DNA from: Pseudomonadota bacterium | GTDB lineage: Bacteria > Pseudomonadota > Alphaproteobacteria > SHVP01 | Direction of reading: 5' to 3' | Length of the DNA: 47,594 nucleotides | NCBI GenBank assembly: GCA_022566715.1 | Contig: JADFIH010000007.1 | Coordinates: 1-47,594 of the forward strand | In this document: piece after piece, positions 26,496 through 32,752 of the stretch | Layout: the number at the start of each line of letters is the position of its first letter | Position numbering within the stretch: the first letter of the stretch is position 1 | Program-made: the position numbers and the translations under genes | Notes under the pieces: model-generated | The model's database searches: none | The model's input: the letters and a program-made list of their open reading frames with translations, nothing else | Told to the model about the DNA's origin: nothing

Positions 26496-27062
26496 TCAAG
26501 ACGGCGGTGGGGATTTTCTGAACTTGTGGCCGAGCCAAATAACGGCGAATCCGGCGATCAGGCCGAACAGGTGACTCTCGAAGGAAACCTGGCTTCGCAG
26601 CGGGAGAATGCCCCACAATAATCCGCCGTAGGCCAAGACCGTCCCGATGGCGATGGCGATTGCGATAGCGCTTCGTTCGAAAACGGCGCGGCCCAGGATC
26701 ACTCCGAAATAGCCGAACACCAATCCGCTCGCGCCGACGTGGAATGCTCCGCGGGCGAAAATCCACACCAATATGCCCGACAGCAGGATGACGCTGATGG
26801 TCGTTTCCCAAAACTTTCTCTTTCCCCCCGCAAGGGTGAGGCCGCCGAGAATCAATATCGGAATCGTGTTGGAAACGGCGTGCCAGAGTCCGGCGTGAAT
26901 CCACGGGGACAGCGGAATACCGATCAGGCCGCGTAGGGTGCGGGGCAATATCCCCCACGACACGAGCCGATGTCCGAGCAACAGGTTCACGAGTTCGACC
27001 GCCCAGATCAGGGCGACGAGCGCGAGTACGGGCCGAATTCCATTCGCGAACTTGGCGATCAT
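26496..27062 (-). CDS. Rhomboid family intramembrane serine protease
   Basis: GASGLVFGYFG (GxSG catalytic Ser), SFESHLFGLIAG (catalytic His), WHAVSNTIP; six TM-like segments. Confidence 0.88.
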   Translation of the reverse strand: MIAKFANGIRPVLALVALIWAVELVNLLLGHRLVSWGILPRTLRGLIGIPLSPWIHAGLWHAVSNTIPILILGGLTLAGGKRKFWETTISVILLSGILVWIFARGAFHVGASGLVFGYFGVILGRAVFERSAIAIAIAIGTVLAYGGLLWGILPLRSQVSFESHLFGLIAGFAVIWLGHKFRKSPPPS

Positions 27063-27203: not shown

Positions 27204-28587
27204 ACAGGTTCTGGCGGCGAAGGGATGATGCAGACGGGTCCGCTTTCCGCCAAGTTTTCACCTCCAGCCTGTTGATCGGCCTTCTGACCGAACCGGGCGC
27301 GATCCCGGCCCGGAGCGCGCTCAATATGCCGGCGGCCTCCCAATAATTCTCGGCGCTAAAGAGCTGATCGTCCCGCCACGGCAGGGTGTTGAGGTCGCCG
27401 GCGCTAAGGCCGCTGCCCTCACGAACCGCGATGACGGGAATTCCCTGTTCAAGGGCGGCAAGGGTCGGCAGCCCGATACATCCCTCCGGTATGACCAGGC
27501 ATGAGATATCCCGGACCGTCAACACACCCCTTGCGGCCATCCGGTCCGGATCGGTCACGATGCGCGGCGATTGTTTCAACCCTTTCAGAACACACTGAAA
27601 GAAGGACGAGGAAATGGCTTCCGCCGCCATGCGCGGATCGACCCGGCCCGGATCCTCGTTCAGTATTTCACGGGATTCCATCATCGGCGCGTGCGCCGAC
27701 GGAACGTTGAAGCAATGGGATACCGCGTGGGTCAGCATGGCTTCGATGCCGCCCCAGGGATTGATCATGGTTCCGCCGCTGCTGAAATACTTTTCGTGAA
27801 ACCCGTCGGGCACGCCGATCAACGACGAAATAGCGACGGCGTCATAGTCGTCCGCCGTCTCCTTGAGCAACTCGAAAAGCCTGTCGATGCCCCGGCCGGA
27901 ACCGACCGCCCGTCCCGACGCCGAGAAAGTTGCCGTTAGTTCCAACGGCGGATCGAGCTTGTAGAGACCCGTGCATTGAAGCCCATAAGTGGCCCGCGCG
28001 GATTCCACCGTGTTCAAGACGAGATTTTCGATCATTGGATCGGACTGAGAATCGAAAACGACCATCACCCGGTTCGCCCGCACCGGCTCAAGCCCGACGG
28101 TTCCCATGAGCAGCCGGGACAGAACGCTGCCCTCCACATAGAGGGCGTTGGCCGGCATCTCGTTGATGTCGCTGGCGTTCACCACATTGGGATGGGTGAT
28201 GAATCGATCGCAGCACGACGCTAGGAGTTGCGCCGCCGGGGTGGCGTCGCCGGCGTGGCCGCCGACCTCCGCGCCGATGCCGGTCGGCACCACATAAACC
28301 GCATTGAATTGCTCGGCGTTTTCACTACCCCGCCGCCGCAGCCGGAATATGGAGTCATGGCCGTCCGCGGTGGAACCGTCGGGACCGATCAAGCAACCGA
28401 CTTCGCAGTGATATTTGTCGCCGCCGACCGAAGTTATCGCCAGCCGAACCGGGATCTCGCCTTCGGTGAACCTGAACGACAGGGCCTTTTCAAGATGTTC
28501 GATTATGCCGCGATTTCCCGACGCGGCTGGAATCGTGACGGCTTTTTCAAGCAACTGCAATGTCGGTGACCCCCGCATTTTGCGCAA
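27202..28587 (-). CDS. DUF3326 family protein (likely start near 28578)
   Basis: VYVVPTGIGAEVGGHAGDATPAAQLLASCCDRFITHPNVVNASDINEMPANALYVEGSVLSRLLMGTVGL matches the DUF3326 signature as I recall it. Confidence 0.78.
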   Translation of the reverse strand: MRKMRGSPTLQLLEKAVTIPAASGNRGIIEHLEKALSFRFTEGEIPVRLAITSVGGDKYHCEVGCLIGPDGSTADGHDSIFRLRRRGSENAEQFNAVYVVPTGIGAEVGGHAGDATPAAQLLASCCDRFITHPNVVNASDINEMPANALYVEGSVLSRLLMGTVGLEPVRANRVMVVFDSQSDPMIENLVLNTVESARATYGLQCTGLYKLDPPLELTATFSASGRAVGSGRGIDRLFELLKETADDYDAVAISSLIGVPDGFHEKYFSSGGTMINPWGGIEAMLTHAVSHCFNVPSAHAPMMESREILNEDPGRVDPRMAAEAISSSFFQCVLKGLKQSPRIVTDPDRMAARGVLTVRDISCLVIPEGCIGLPTLAALEQGIPVIAVREGSGLSAGDLNTLPWRDDQLFSAENYWEAAGILSALRAGIAPGSVRRPINRLEVKTWRKADPSASSLRRQNL

Positions 28588-29719
28588 AATCCTCGAAACG
28601 GTCGGTCCTGACCTCGTCGAGGGAACCGTCGGGACGGCGTGCGTAGATCGCCGGCAAACCGACCCCGTTGAACCGGTGGGCCTTGGACATCGTGTAGGCC
28701 CCCATATTTAGAAACGTGATTCTGGAGCCGGGCGTCAAGGCCCTGTCGAACGAATATTGTCCAAACACGTCGCCGGCCAGGCAGGTGCAACCGGCAAGCA
28801 TATAGGAATGGAGCCCGCCATCGACGTGCCCCAGAACATCGGGTTCGAACTGAAACTCAAGAACCTCCGGCATGTGGTTCACCGTCGTGTCGAGGATCGC
28901 GATCTGGATATCGTCGCCGTCGAATATATCATGAACCGTCGCTTCGATCGTTCCACAGCGCCGCACGGCCGCGGCGCCGGGTTCGATGAAGACCTCGAGG
29001 CCGAATGTCTCGCGGAAGATCGCGACCGCCTCGTAAAAATCGGCGTAATCGCCCGCTGAATCAAATAGATAGCCGCCGCCCAAATTGATCCAATCGATTT
29101 GTTTCAGGACTTTGGGGATAACGTCTCGAATGTGCCGCGCCGTCGCGAGGAGGCCGGCGAAATCGGTGGCCTCGCAATTGGTGTGAAAATGAAGGCCCGT
29201 GACGCCGCGAAGGCCGGCGGGCTCCGACTCGATAAGGTCCGCCAGCCCGCCGATGGGCGTCCCGAGTTTCGAGTTCCGCCGGCAGGGGTCGTATCGGGGA
29301 TCGCGGATGAAGGACAGCTGTGGGTTCACACGGAGCCCAACCCGGGTCTCCGCCGACACCGCGCCGCGAAGACGGCGCCATTGGGAGAGGGAGTTAAAGG
29401 TGAGGTAGTCGAGACGCCCGCCGAACTCCTCCAGGGTTTTCTGCTCGATCAACGGACTTGTCAGGTGCAGTGTCGGGGCGCCGCCAAACTGCCGGTCGAC
29501 CAGACGGAGCTCGAAGAGAGAGCTGCAGGCGAATCCGTCGACCTTCGGCGCGACCCCACGAAGCACCGGCGAAAGCGAACACGCCTTGGGCGAATAGAGA
29601 AGCTTGCACGACGCTTGATCCGCGATCTTCCGGAGCAACGCCACGTCACGCCGCAAGGCCTTTTCGTCGATCACGAACGCCGGCGTATCAATCCCGTCCG
29701 CCAAAGTTACGCCTCCCAA
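28547..29719 (-). CDS. Carboxynorspermidine-decarboxylase-like (NspC-like) fold-type III PLP enzyme
   Basis: LLYSPKACSLSPVLRGVAPKVDGFACSSLFELRLV; GLRVNPQLSFIRDPRYDPCRRNSKLG; LHFHTNCEATDF; WINLGGGYLFD; FIEPGAAAVR; GCTCLAGDVFGQY. Confidence 0.82.
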   Translation of the reverse strand: MGGVTLADGIDTPAFVIDEKALRRDVALLRKIADQASCKLLYSPKACSLSPVLRGVAPKVDGFACSSLFELRLVDRQFGGAPTLHLTSPLIEQKTLEEFGGRLDYLTFNSLSQWRRLRGAVSAETRVGLRVNPQLSFIRDPRYDPCRRNSKLGTPIGGLADLIESEPAGLRGVTGLHFHTNCEATDFAGLLATARHIRDVIPKVLKQIDWINLGGGYLFDSAGDYADFYEAVAIFRETFGLEVFIEPGAAAVRRCGTIEATVHDIFDGDDIQIAILDTTVNHMPEVLEFQFEPDVLGHVDGGLHSYMLAGCTCLAGDVFGQYSFDRALTPGSRITFLNMGAYTMSKAHRFNGVGLPAIYARRPDGSLDEVRTDRFEDFAQNAGVTDIAVA

Positions 29720-29855: not shown

Positions 29856-31016
29856 CTAATCCAGGATGACGTGCGGAACAAAATTCGCATCTTCGCCCGT
29901 TATCAGGGTTCGGCCTTCGCGAATCGATACGCCGGCCGGCCGGCCGGCGATGATCCAGCACCCGACCAGCGGAAATCTCCCGTCGAATTCCGGAAGCGGA
30001 TGAAAAGCCTGCACGATGTGACCTTCCTCGCCATAGGGCCCGTCCTTGCGGGACAACGCCATGCCGTCACGCACGATCTCGATATTCGAGCCTTGGCGCG
30101 AAAGCAATGGTTTCCGAACATAGCTGTCCGATAGGGCGCCGGCCCGCGGATCGTCTTCAAAATAGGCCGGCAATAAATTGGGATGGCCTTCGAACATGTC
30201 CCATAACAGCGGCAGAAGTCCCTTGTTGGATAGGACCGCCTTCCAGGGCGGTTCCAGAAAATGCACGCCGCAGCCGACCAGAAATCGCCCGAACTCCTCC
30301 TCCATGATCCATTCCCAGGGGTAGAGTTTGAACAGGGTGGTGATGACCCGGTCCTCCAGGTCGGTGAACCGCCCCGACGCATCGACGCCGATATCTCTCA
30401 TGGCGAGAAGATTCGTTTCCAGACCGGCTTCCCGGGCACATTCCTCGAGGTACTTGGCGGTTTCGCGGTCGTCCTCGACATCCCTCAGGCAGGCCAGGTG
30501 CAACAGCCCCTCGGCCCCCATCGTCTGGAACGCGGCCACCAGATCTTCATGGAGCTCCGCGAATTGATCGCAGTCTGGCGGAATTAGACCGGCCGAAATG
30601 GCCTCTTCGAGCCAGACCCACTGAAAGACCGCCGACTCGTAGAGGGTCGTTGGCGTGTCGGCGTTGTACTCCAGCAGTTTGGCATCCCCGGCGCCGTCGT
30701 AGGAAAAGTCCAACCGGCCATAGAGGTCCTTTTCCCGGTTCCGCCAACTCGCCGCGATATAATCCCAGTATCCCTCGGGAATGCACAATCGGCGATAGAC
30801 CGTCTCGTCCGCCAGCGAGCGGTCGAGCAACTGGAAGCACATGTCGTCGATTTCCTCGGCCGGCTTTTCGAGATCGTTCTCGATTTGGCGCAGGGTGAAC
30901 CGGTAGTAGGCGGTCTCATCCCAAAAGGGGACCCCAGCGCCGGCGCTGTAGTCGTAGCCGTGCCGCAGGGCCGCGCCCTTCAGATCCGGCCGCTGGGCGA
31001 CAGGTATGCGTTGCAT
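29856..31016 (-). CDS. Glutathionylspermidine-synthase-like ATP-grasp amidoligase (YjfC/YgiC-like)
   Basis: LEYNADTPTTLYESAVFQW; WKAVLSNKGLLPLLWDMFEGHPNLLPAYF; YVRKPLLSRQGSNIEIV; VGCWIIAGRPAGVSIREG: GSP_synth domain motifs. Confidence 0.92.
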   Translation of the reverse strand: MQRIPVAQRPDLKGAALRHGYDYSAGAGVPFWDETAYYRFTLRQIENDLEKPAEEIDDMCFQLLDRSLADETVYRRLCIPEGYWDYIAASWRNREKDLYGRLDFSYDGAGDAKLLEYNADTPTTLYESAVFQWVWLEEAISAGLIPPDCDQFAELHEDLVAAFQTMGAEGLLHLACLRDVEDDRETAKYLEECAREAGLETNLLAMRDIGVDASGRFTDLEDRVITTLFKLYPWEWIMEEEFGRFLVGCGVHFLEPPWKAVLSNKGLLPLLWDMFEGHPNLLPAYFEDDPRAGALSDSYVRKPLLSRQGSNIEIVRDGMALSRKDGPYGEEGHIVQAFHPLPEFDGRFPLVGCWIIAGRPAGVSIREGRTLITGEDANFVPHVILD

Positions 31017-31095: not shown

Positions 31096-31788
31096 CTAGC
31101 GGCCTCGTTTCGCCTTCAGCCGGGCCAAGACGTCGCCGCCGCTGGCGCCGCCGCCGACGATTCCCGCGGCTTTCAATTTGGCGTCGAGGCTGACTTCCTC
31201 GGTGGATTCCGCGAGTTCACTGGCGGCCTCGAATTTCGCCGCCCGTTCGGCCTGCTTGGTTTTCAGCCTGTCCAGGCTGTCAAGTGCGCTACGCATGCTC
31301 GAGCCCGCCCCTGAATGACGCGCCGCCACGGCGGCCTGCGCCTTTTGCACTTTTTCGGTCGCCTTGACGGTATCGACCTGTTGCTTAAGCCGCTTCAGAT
31401 TCGCGTCGGTGTGGCTCACCGCCTTGCGCAGTTGCCCTTCGCTAACGGCGAATGATTTCGCGACGCCTTCCTCGCCCATCAACTCGGTCTCGAGACCGGC
31501 GATTTTTTCGGCGACCTCGGTCGCCAGCGCGTCGTCGCCCTTATCGAGCGCCTGCATGGCATAGCCCTCATATTCCGTGAGCGACGATTTCAGGCTTTCG
31601 ACCTTTTTGTCGGCCAATTTACGCTTGGCGATGATGCCGGTGAGGGCGTCCTTCGATTTGCCGAGCTCCTTGTCGGCGTCCCGGATCTCCTGGTCCAAGA
31701 TGCGCAGGATTTGATTGTCGACGATGGCCTCGCCGGCTTCACTAACGCCGCCGCGGACGGCCGTCGTAACTTTTCTCCAGATGCTCAT
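31096..31788 (-). CDS. PspA/IM30 family protein (YjfJ-like)
   Basis: MSIWRKVTTAVRGGVSEAGEAIVDNQILRILDQEIRDADKELGKSKDALTGIIAKRKLADKKVESL; long coiled coil. Confidence 0.9.
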   Translation of the reverse strand: MSIWRKVTTAVRGGVSEAGEAIVDNQILRILDQEIRDADKELGKSKDALTGIIAKRKLADKKVESLKSSLTEYEGYAMQALDKGDDALATEVAEKIAGLETELMGEEGVAKSFAVSEGQLRKAVSHTDANLKRLKQQVDTVKATEKVQKAQAAVAARHSGAGSSMRSALDSLDRLKTKQAERAAKFEAASELAESTEEVSLDAKLKAAGIVGGGASGGDVLARLKAKRGR

Positions 31789-31839
31789 GGCGTTTACGCT
31801 CCTCGTCAAATGTGAATGTGGGGTCTGCCGAACGTTCCG

Positions 31840-32475
31840 TCAGGCGACATCCCTCAGGTCCGACTGATAGGCCGCGGCGGCCTGCATGGCGTTGTCGGCC
31901 AGGGTCTCGATCTCGAAAATGACCGACTCCAAGATCGAGCCCGCGCTCAAGGAGCCGAACATTTCGTAATAGTCCTTGCCGTCCGGACCCAGCCGAATAC
32001 CGAACGTCGAAAGGGGGAGGAGCTTATGGGTCTTCAAAATAAATGTGTTGAAGGCCGCGGGGTCATTGACCTCGTCGACCGGCCACAGAAGCGTATCGAC
32101 AAGGATCTGGCTGCCGCTGACGCTCATGAGGACCGGCAAGTCGCCAAACTCCGTCATGGTGATGAGTATCCCCGGGTCGGTGCCTTCGACCAATTCCACC
32201 TCGATTTCGCCGTCGCCCGCGGGCTCGGATTGGCCGAGCGCCTTAAAGAGGGTTTCGGTGGTCCAGTTTCCGTCTTCGCTCATTTTGGTCTCCCTTACCG
32301 TCTTCGGAATGATCGGCATGACGCCGGCCCTTAACGCTGTTTCGCAGTCCTTCAATATCTTCGTATAGTCGGGCGGAATCCATATCTCCCGCTTTACGTA
32401 CCCTTTTTCGCGCAATCGCGCACGGTACCTGGACTGGTAGTAGGACGACTTCCTTGACGCCATAAATGAACCCAT
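31840..32475 (-). CDS. DUF2170 (YjfI-like) protein with N-terminal putative ribbon-helix-helix/MetJ-Arc-like region (alternative ATG at 32463)
   Basis: C-terminal DUF2170-like GDGEIEVELVEGTDPGILITMTEFGDLPVLMSVSGSQILVDTLLWPVDEVNDPAAFNTFILKTHKLLPLSTFGI; basic N-terminus SRKSSYYQSRYRARLREKGYVKREIWIPPDYTKILKDCETALR. Confidence 0.78.
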   Translation of the reverse strand: MGSFMASRKSSYYQSRYRARLREKGYVKREIWIPPDYTKILKDCETALRAGVMPIIPKTVRETKMSEDGNWTTETLFKALGQSEPAGDGEIEVELVEGTDPGILITMTEFGDLPVLMSVSGSQILVDTLLWPVDEVNDPAAFNTFILKTHKLLPLSTFGIRLGPDGKDYYEMFGSLSAGSILESVIFEIETLADNAMQAAAAYQSDLRDVA

Positions 32476-32480
32476 TCCGT

Positions 32481-32508
32481 TTATACATGTAACATATTAC
32501 ATGTATAA
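32481..32508. promoter_or_regulatory. Perfect palindromic operator candidate upstream of the DUF2170 gene
   Basis: TTATACATGTAA-CATA-TTACATGTATAA, 12-bp arms; overlaps a candidate minus-strand promoter TTGCAA (32513-32518) - 16 bp - TATGTT (32491-32496). Confidence 0.75.
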
Positions 32509-32572
32509 TAAATTGCAAGGGGTCGCAACGGAAAAATGTGGCGGGATCACCCCCCGGGATCATCCCCTTGGA

Positions 32573-32651
32573 GGGCCCGCGGGCCCGTAGGGCAAATCCG
32601 GGTTGACCGGATTCGCCCTGGGTTGATCCGCCTAAGGCGATCCATCAACCC
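32573..32651. repeat. Cluster of three consecutive palindromes/hairpins
   Basis: gggcccgcgggccc (32573-32586); agggcaaatccgg-gttga-ccggattcgccct (32589-32619, 12/13 pairs); gggttgat...atcaaccc with inner cgcc-taa-ggcg (32620-32651). Confidence 0.85.
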
Positions 32652-32752
32652 GGAGAGTTCACCTTAACTTAAATGCCTTAACTCATTTATATTACACGAA
32701 ATAACAACCCTGAACCGAACCGCGTCGTGGTCCCGGCTAAGCCGGAGCCACC

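What the first reader, a model, noticed from the sequence alone, without database searches (positions are those of the whole stretch)
31840..32508. DUF2170 fused to a putative ribbon-helix-helix domain, next to a perfect palindrome covering its own promoter
The N-terminal ~55 aa (YYQSRYRARLREKGYVKREIWIPPDYTKILKDCETALRAG) looks like a beta-strand plus two-helix RHH arrangement. Six bp upstream of the first ATG is TTATACATGTAA-CATA-TTACATGTATAA (32481-32508, no mismatch), an AT-rich island in a GC-rich genome, overlapping a TTGCAA-N16-TATGTT promoter candidate. Inference: the protein is the autoregulator of the PspA/YjfC-like operon, linking a stress sensor (DUF2170) to transcription.
Basis: partly seen in the sequence, partly recalled or inferred. 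Interest (0 to 1): 0.68.

Follow-up and report, generated by a model that had tools for sequence, protein, structure and literature searches.

The report
Autorepressor of a PspA/polyamine-type operon
The first gene of a bacterial membrane-stress operon appears to encode a two-part repressor, with a DNA-binding domain related to toxin-antitoxin antitoxins joined to a chaperone-like domain, that shuts off its own operon by binding paired palindromic boxes over its promoter; this suggests what the little-understood BacA/YjfI family does.

Summary
A perfect 12-bp inverted repeat (32481-32508) covers the promoter of a 211-aa gene. The protein's C-terminus is DUF2170, and its ~50-aa N-terminal domain is absent from yjfI-type DUF2170 proteins. 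The repeat is two TACATGTA boxes, 14 bp apart.

The boxes follow the N-terminal domain. At least one box lies upstream of 45 of 48 genes with the domain, in alpha- and gammaproteobacteria, and of 1 of 25 genes without it; that exception keeps a truncated domain. Each of 11 Pseudomonas genomes holds the two-box pattern once. In one clade the core changes from ACATGT to ACGCGT together with two residues of the predicted DNA-reading strand.

The N-terminal domain is homologous to MazE-like antitoxins that sit beside PemK/MazF toxins. It is predicted as helix-strand-helix, so a canonical ribbon-helix-helix fold is not shown. The C-terminal domain is the CesT-like fold of Pseudomonas aeruginosa BacA (8q8o). 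A published bacA mutant overproduces its own operon 6- to 13-fold, as expected of an autorepressor. The BacA crystal lacks the N-terminal domain, and the BacA papers read here do not mention it.

Best reading: BacA-type proteins are autorepressors of PspA/polyamine operons. PspA as the signal is inferred. A new variant of a known kind.

The parts
32481..32508 (.). Operator: perfect inverted repeat, two TACATGTA boxes
   Evidence: mostly 90-100% column conservation across 11 alphaproteobacterial loci
32498..32505 (.). Upstream (distal) box TACATGTA, in the -35/-10 spacer
   Evidence: conserved in relatives
32484..32491 (.). Proximal box TACATGTA, at -28 from the second ATG
   Evidence: same offset (-26 to -28) in Pseudomonas loci
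32491..32518 (-). Promoter candidate TTGCAA (32518-32513) - N16 - TATGTT (32496-32491)
   Evidence: direct reading; TTG and the -10 columns conserved in the alphaproteobacterial alignment
31840..32475 (-). BacA/YjfI-type autorepressor gene (211 aa; likely start M5 at 32463)
   Evidence: NF050185 (BacA) E 3e-70 over residues 5-210, 236 bits against an equivalog cut-off of 300
32320..32463 (-). N-terminal DNA-binding domain, residues 5-52 (helix-strand-helix; MazE-like/UrfF-related)
   Evidence: invariant R18, G25, K28, E30 in 54 sequences
31861..32268 (-). DUF2170 / CesT-YbjN-like domain, residues 70-205
   Evidence: PF09938 E 5e-48; 8q8o TM 0.91 by target
31096..31809 (-). PspA/IM30 gene, second gene of the operon
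   Evidence: PF04012 E 2e-51
29856..31016 (-). Glutathionylspermidine synthase-like (YjfC-like)
   Evidence: PF03738 E 8e-138
28547..29719 (-). PLP-dependent ornithine/DAP/arginine decarboxylase-like
   Evidence: PF02784 / PF00278
27202..28587 (-). DUF3326 protein
   Evidence: PF11805 E 9e-89
26496..27062 (-). Rhomboid-family protease
   Evidence: PF01694
23508..26438 (+). Converging block: ion channel with TrkA_N, DUF2491, DUF350, DUF1190 (known partners of such operons)
   Evidence: partners listed in PMC11237479

Best explanation
The gene encodes a BacA-type autorepressor. Two subunits join their predicted strand (G25-YVKREIWIP), and perhaps their helices, to read a palindromic TACATGTA box. 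Two boxes lie over the promoter, one between -35 and -10 and one at or just after -10, so the bound protein blocks its own operon (pspA, glutathionylspermidine synthase and following genes). The C-terminal CesT/YbjN-like domain dimerises and is the likely signal input, most probably by holding PspA. When membrane damage draws PspA to the bilayer, the repressor's state changes and the operon is released. Shown by sequence comparison: two-domain layout, operator conservation, domain-operator linkage, one operator per genome, specificity covariation. Inferred: binding itself, repression rather than activation in this organism, and the PspA signal.
For: Boxes are present upstream of 45/48 genes with the domain and 1/25 without it, and of 22 further loci with the domain examined later (20 bacA homologues and 2 paralogues). 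The box columns are mostly 90-100% conserved in alphaproteobacterial upstream regions, where most flanking columns are near 30-70%. A single genome-wide match to the two-box pattern was found in 11/11 Pseudomonas genomes, at bacA wherever I compared coordinates with the gene hits, and none for the reversed control. The ACGCGT two-box pattern occurs once in 6 of 10 genomes, and in 0 of 2 with only the ACATGT type. Strand residues 29/31 = H/T go with ACGCGT, R or K goes with ACATGT, and H/A (L069) has one box of each. One genome (G521) carries both types, each with its own box; in G523 the bacA copy that lost most of the domain (L049) carries ACGCGT boxes, matching the KHETW paralogue there. L059 lacks both domain and boxes. 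L133, outside the first set, has paired TTCGCGAA palindromes 13 bp apart. The N-terminal profile matches MazE-like antitoxins (hhalign probability 95%), which sit beside PemK toxins. Published: a P. aeruginosa bacA mutant accumulates BacB-BacF 6.1- to 13.5-fold (PMC10948618); BacA-BacB(PspA) interaction predicted at 0.981 (PMC13092808).
Against: No binding data exist. Domain presence changes only about 5 times on the tree and the H/ACGCGT switch once, so the Fisher p-values are not independent evidence. The box patterns were defined after seeing sequences. Three loci with the domain (L009, L011, L064) show no exact box, though L011 and L009 have degenerate ones. P. aeruginosa itself is not in the held genomes, so it is unverified that its BacA carries the N-terminal domain; the published BacA is 16 kDa and the BacA authors proposed a sigma-54 promoter. 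The predicted N-terminal fold has no PDB match.
Confidence: 0.82

Rival explanations
1. The palindrome is the site of another, unlinked regulator (for example a global stress factor); the N-terminal domain does something else, such as binding PspA or RNA.
For: No direct binding data. Some DUF2170 operons without the domain carry different boxes, GACATAATATGTC, so other regulators of these operons exist.
Against: The two-box pattern occurs once per genome, unlike a global regulator's sites. Boxes track the N-terminal domain and change with its strand residues. In operons of the group without the domain that were inspected, a separate small RHH-like protein is encoded nearby.
Confidence: 0.08
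2. The protein binds the boxes but activates, or acts as both activator and repressor, instead of repressing.
For: In some Pseudomonas loci the boxes lie 45-52 bp apart with the distal one at about -72 to -80 from the ATG, a position compatible with activation or looping.
Against: In the window and its alphaproteobacterial relatives the boxes cover the spacer and -10. The bacA mutant overproduces its operon partners (PMC10948618).
Confidence: 0.07
3. The repeat acts as RNA: a hairpin at the 5' end of the transcript or a terminator/attenuator.
For: A perfect 12-bp arm could form an RNA stem.
Against: It overlaps the candidate promoter, upstream of any likely transcript. In relatives the boxes are 22-52 bp apart, so no common hairpin forms; conservation is of each 8-bp palindrome.
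Confidence: 0.03

Closest known systems
BacA (PA3732/PA14_16140) of Pseudomonas aeruginosa; NCBIfam NF050185; PDB 8q8o
   Same: Same family over the full length (E 3e-70, residues 5-210), first gene of a pspA operon, DUF2170 fold; a bacA mutant overproduces its own operon.
   Different: Score is below the equivalog cut-off (236 vs 300). The published crystal and the 16-kDa product cover only DUF2170; the papers read here do not mention a DNA-binding N-terminus or these boxes, and propose a sigma-54 promoter.
Antitoxin MazE-like (PF11455, DUF3018) of type II toxin-antitoxin modules
   Same: Helix plus strand motif R..R..LR..G......W.P; hhalign probability 95%; relatives found here next to PemK/MazF toxins; such antitoxins commonly repress their own promoters (general knowledge).
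   Different: No toxin here; the toxin-neutralising tail is replaced by DUF2170. The window domain scores below the Pfam cut-off (14.9 vs 22 bits for the domain alone).
E. coli YjfI (yjfI-yjfJ-...-yjfC)
   Same: DUF2170 gene beside a PspA homologue and glutathionylspermidine synthase-like genes.
   Different: Described as a DUF2170/CesT-like protein only; the homologues without the domain sampled here also lack these boxes. The E. coli locus itself was not read.
ExsC, CesT and YbjN/AmyR fold family
   Same: C-terminal domain fold, including chaperones and regulators that act by protein-protein contact.
   Different: These matches are to the C-terminal fold, not to the N-terminal DNA-binding domain; function of the C-terminal domain here is untested.

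Membership tests
DUF2170 / YjfI-BacA family | PF09938 domain above the gathering score | tested here: met
   162.8 bits vs cut-off 27
DUF2170 / YjfI-BacA family | Adjacent pspA gene | tested here: met
   PF04012 at 31096-31809, E 2e-51
BacA equivalog (NF050185) | Score above the 300-bit cut-off | tested here: not met
   235.8 bits, full-length match 5-210: a relative, not an assigned equivalog
Ribbon-helix-helix superfamily | beta-alpha-alpha topology | tested here: not met
   Models give helix-extended-helix, no second helix after the strand; a monomer model cannot show the intermolecular ribbon
Ribbon-helix-helix superfamily | Structural match to a solved RHH protein | tested here: inconclusive
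   No significant Foldseek match of any kind for the 71-aa model
MazE-like antitoxin domain (PF11455) | Pfam gathering score | tested here: not met
   14.9 bits vs 22; 7 of 35 relatives match, best E 8.5e-5
MazE-like antitoxin domain (PF11455) | Profile-profile homology | tested here: met
   hhalign 95.1% probability over 35 columns
Autorepressor with dedicated operator | Conserved palindromic site over its own promoter, once per genome | tested here: met
Autorepressor with dedicated operator | Specific DNA binding and derepression in a deletion mutant | not testable with these tools
   Only indirect: proteomics of the bacA mutant (PMC10948618)

The most novel reading that the evidence does not exclude
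A domain shared with toxin-antitoxin antitoxins, possibly with a helix-ribbon-helix topology not yet in the PDB, has been joined to a CesT-like chaperone domain. The result would be a one-component membrane-stress switch: PspA bound to the chaperone domain decides whether the repressor holds its operator. This would be a sigma-54- and PspF-independent way of running a phage-shock operon.
Probability: 0.4. Interest if true: 0.77.

Novelty: new variant of a known kind. Interest (0 to 1): 0.62.

Why it matters
DUF2170/YjfI proteins are widespread partners of PspA with no agreed molecular function; BacA was called only 'a possible regulator', on the basis of a crystal of part of the protein. The missing part, its operator and a built-in specificity test (KREIW/ACATGT versus KHETW/ACGCGT) make the function directly testable in ordinary laboratory strains. 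They also explain why a bacA mutant overproduces its operon, and suggest re-examining the gene start and the proposed sigma-54 site in P. aeruginosa.

Tried and rejected
Canonical RHH fold: not shown by two AlphaFold jobs and Foldseek. Sequence search for a solved relative of the N-terminal domain: none. Plasmid search with the 47-aa domain alone: no match. P. aeruginosa's own locus: not held, tried by genus search, a viral-contig scan and a guessed back-translation query, whose hits are mostly noise. UrfF literature: no paper found. Strict motif-agnostic test (paired perfect palindromic octamers): 25 of 71 observed against 0.4 expected with the domain, 1 of 25 without; it misses the Pseudomonas TACATGTG type. 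Phylogenetic sign test: too few independent changes to reach significance. Sigma-54-like sites near bacA in close relatives: no consistent site with a simple pattern.

Full report
OBSERVATION. It consists of two identical 8-bp palindromes, TACATGTA, at 32484-32491 and 32498-32505, 14 bp apart centre to centre. It is the longest perfect inverted repeat with a short spacer in the window. A repeat of that size arose in 0.05% of first-order Markov resamplings of the local 120 bp. The patch is 36% GC in a 63% GC window. A degenerate form of the pattern with two mismatches allowed occurs nowhere else in the 3.0-Mb draft genome. The gene, 31840-32475 on the - strand, encodes 211 aa. Residues 70-205 are DUF2170 (PF09938, E 5e-48). 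Several close homologues start at the position of the second ATG (32463), which also puts the proximal box at the same distance from the start (-28) as in other species, so the real protein is probably 207 aa.

SURROUNDINGS. On the same strand follow PspA, a glutathionylspermidine synthase-like protein, a PLP decarboxylase-like protein, DUF3326 and a rhomboid protease. Converging on them are an ion channel with TrkA_N, DUF2491, DUF350 and DUF1190 genes. This is the 'third group' of CesT/Tir-PspA operons of Ravi et al. 2024 (PMC11237479). Among plasmid records the best matches are three Pseudomonas plasmids; the two inspected, including pQBR103, carry the same kind of operon with this gene next to pspA.

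WHAT THE N-TERMINUS IS. DUF2170 proteins fall into two kinds: with and without an extra ~50-residue N-terminal domain. Within that domain R18, G25, K28 and E30 are invariant in 54 sequences. NCBIfam's BacA model (NF050185, 206 aa) covers both domains and matches the window protein end to end (E 3e-70, 236 bits), below the equivalog cut-off of 300. The domain alone matches UrfF, 'plasmid repression protein F' (E 9e-5), and weakly Pfam MazE-like antitoxin (PF11455, E 0.026; 7 of 35 relatives, best E 8.5e-5). A profile comparison with MazE-like antitoxins gives 95% probability over the helix-strand part. The stand-alone relatives used in that comparison lie immediately before PemK/MazF-type toxin genes, and two weaker ones lie before PIN-domain-like genes. 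The domain is therefore related to the front part of toxin-antitoxin antitoxins. AlphaFold models of the whole protein and of the domain agree: helix 10-23, extended 24-34, helix 35-49. That is not the canonical order strand-helix-helix, and Foldseek finds no match for the domain. A monomer model cannot show an intermolecular ribbon, so a ribbon-type DNA reader remains possible but unproven. The C-terminal domain superposes on the P. aeruginosa BacA crystal (8q8o, TM 0.91 by target) and then on YbjN/AmyR and type III secretion chaperones.

THE OPERATOR FOLLOWS THE DOMAIN. Among non-redundant loci in the first set, 45 of 48 genes with the domain have at least one box (ACATGT, ACGCGT or the TTCATGTTA type) within 200 bp upstream, against 1 of 25 without it. 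The exception, L049, retains a truncated domain. Twenty-two further loci examined later all have two boxes each, one of them degenerate (CACACGTG in L084). In the 11 alphaproteobacterial upstream regions the box columns are mostly 90-100% conserved while most of the rest is not; the exceptions are TTG of the -35 and the -10 between the boxes. Spacing between boxes is 13-14 bp in alphaproteobacteria and 22-23, 44-46 or 52 bp in Pseudomonas. Conservation of the boxes with changing spacing argues against an RNA hairpin. A pattern of two boxes 22-23 bp apart occurs exactly once in each of 11 Pseudomonas genomes, with none for the reversed control. The ACGCGT version occurs once in 6 of 10 genomes tested.

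SPECIFICITY. In one Pseudomonas clade the core ACATGT is replaced by ACGCGT, and there the predicted strand reads K-H-E-T-W instead of K-R/K-E-x-W. A K-H-E-A-W protein (L069) has one box of each kind. Genome G521 has both types of gene, each with its own kind of box. In G523 the bacA copy that lost most of its DNA-binding domain has ACGCGT boxes, the type of the KHETW paralogue encoded elsewhere in that genome (the paralogue was fetched to test this idea). L059 lacks both domain and boxes. A divergent member found later (L133) has paired TTCGCGAA boxes 13 bp apart.

LIMITS OF THE STATISTICS. The box patterns were defined after reading sequences, and the sequences are related. On a tree of the DUF2170 domain (quick method, many forks open) the domain changes at least 5 times and the H/ACGCGT switch once. 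The Fisher p-values (6e-15 for any box) therefore overstate independence. A strict motif-agnostic test finds 25 of 71 against 0.4 expected. The weight of the case rests on deep conservation, one site per genome and the paralogue comparisons.

MECHANISM. Shown by comparison: a two-domain protein, a dedicated operator over its own promoter, and linkage of box sequence to strand residues. Supported by published work on the homologue BacA: loss of BacA raises BacB-BacF 6.1- to 13.5-fold (PMC10948618), and BacA-BacB, the PspA-like partner, is a predicted complex at 0.981 (PMC13092808). Inferred: the protein represses; PspA bound to the CesT-like domain carries the membrane-stress signal. It is open whether PspA is a co-repressor lost to the damaged membrane or an anti-repressor. 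The BacA papers read here describe a 16-kDa protein, a crystal that starts at the DUF2170 domain and a proposed sigma-54 site. If P. aeruginosa bacA has the domain, as nearly all its 72-78% relatives sampled do, its annotated start is late and that promoter should be re-examined; I could not read the P. aeruginosa locus.

A PARALLEL SOLUTION. Some gammaproteobacterial DUF2170 operons lack the fused domain and carry instead GACATAATATGTC boxes before the DUF2170 gene. The three inspected (L086, L087, L089) encode a separate 108-120-aa protein nearby with an RHH-like sequence (the likeness is by eye, no family model matched it), probably the RHH factor noted by Ravi et al. Fused and separate repressors thus seem to serve the same operons; the second link is only a lead.

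VERDICT. It is a new variant of a known kind: an antitoxin-like DNA-binding domain fused to a CesT-like domain, controlling a PspA operon.

Noticed in passing
L086, L087, L089 (also L024, L026, L028, L029, L034, L082): DUF2170 operons without the fused domain carry GACATAATATGTC palindromes, often in pairs 33-37 bp apart, upstream of DUF2170. The three operons inspected encode a separate 108-120-aa RHH-like protein nearby: a candidate cognate repressor.
   Followed up: partly
L049 (G523) and L083 (G523): A bacA copy that lost most of its DNA-binding domain has operator boxes of the other paralogue's type, suggesting control in trans by the paralogue.
   Followed up: partly
L045 and L046 (Pseudomonas plasmids of the pQBR103 type): The PspA/glutathionylspermidine operon with this repressor gene is carried on large plasmids, with extra half-boxes (TTTCATGTAAG / CTTACATGAAA) further upstream.
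   Followed up: no
L132 and L137: Antitoxin-like proteins before PIN-domain-like (VapC-like) genes share the helix-strand part of this domain; the one scanned matched no Pfam family above its cut-off.
   Followed up: no
window 32580-32652: Strong inverted repeats lie between the upstream deacetylase gene and this operon, possibly the upstream gene's terminator.
   Followed up: no
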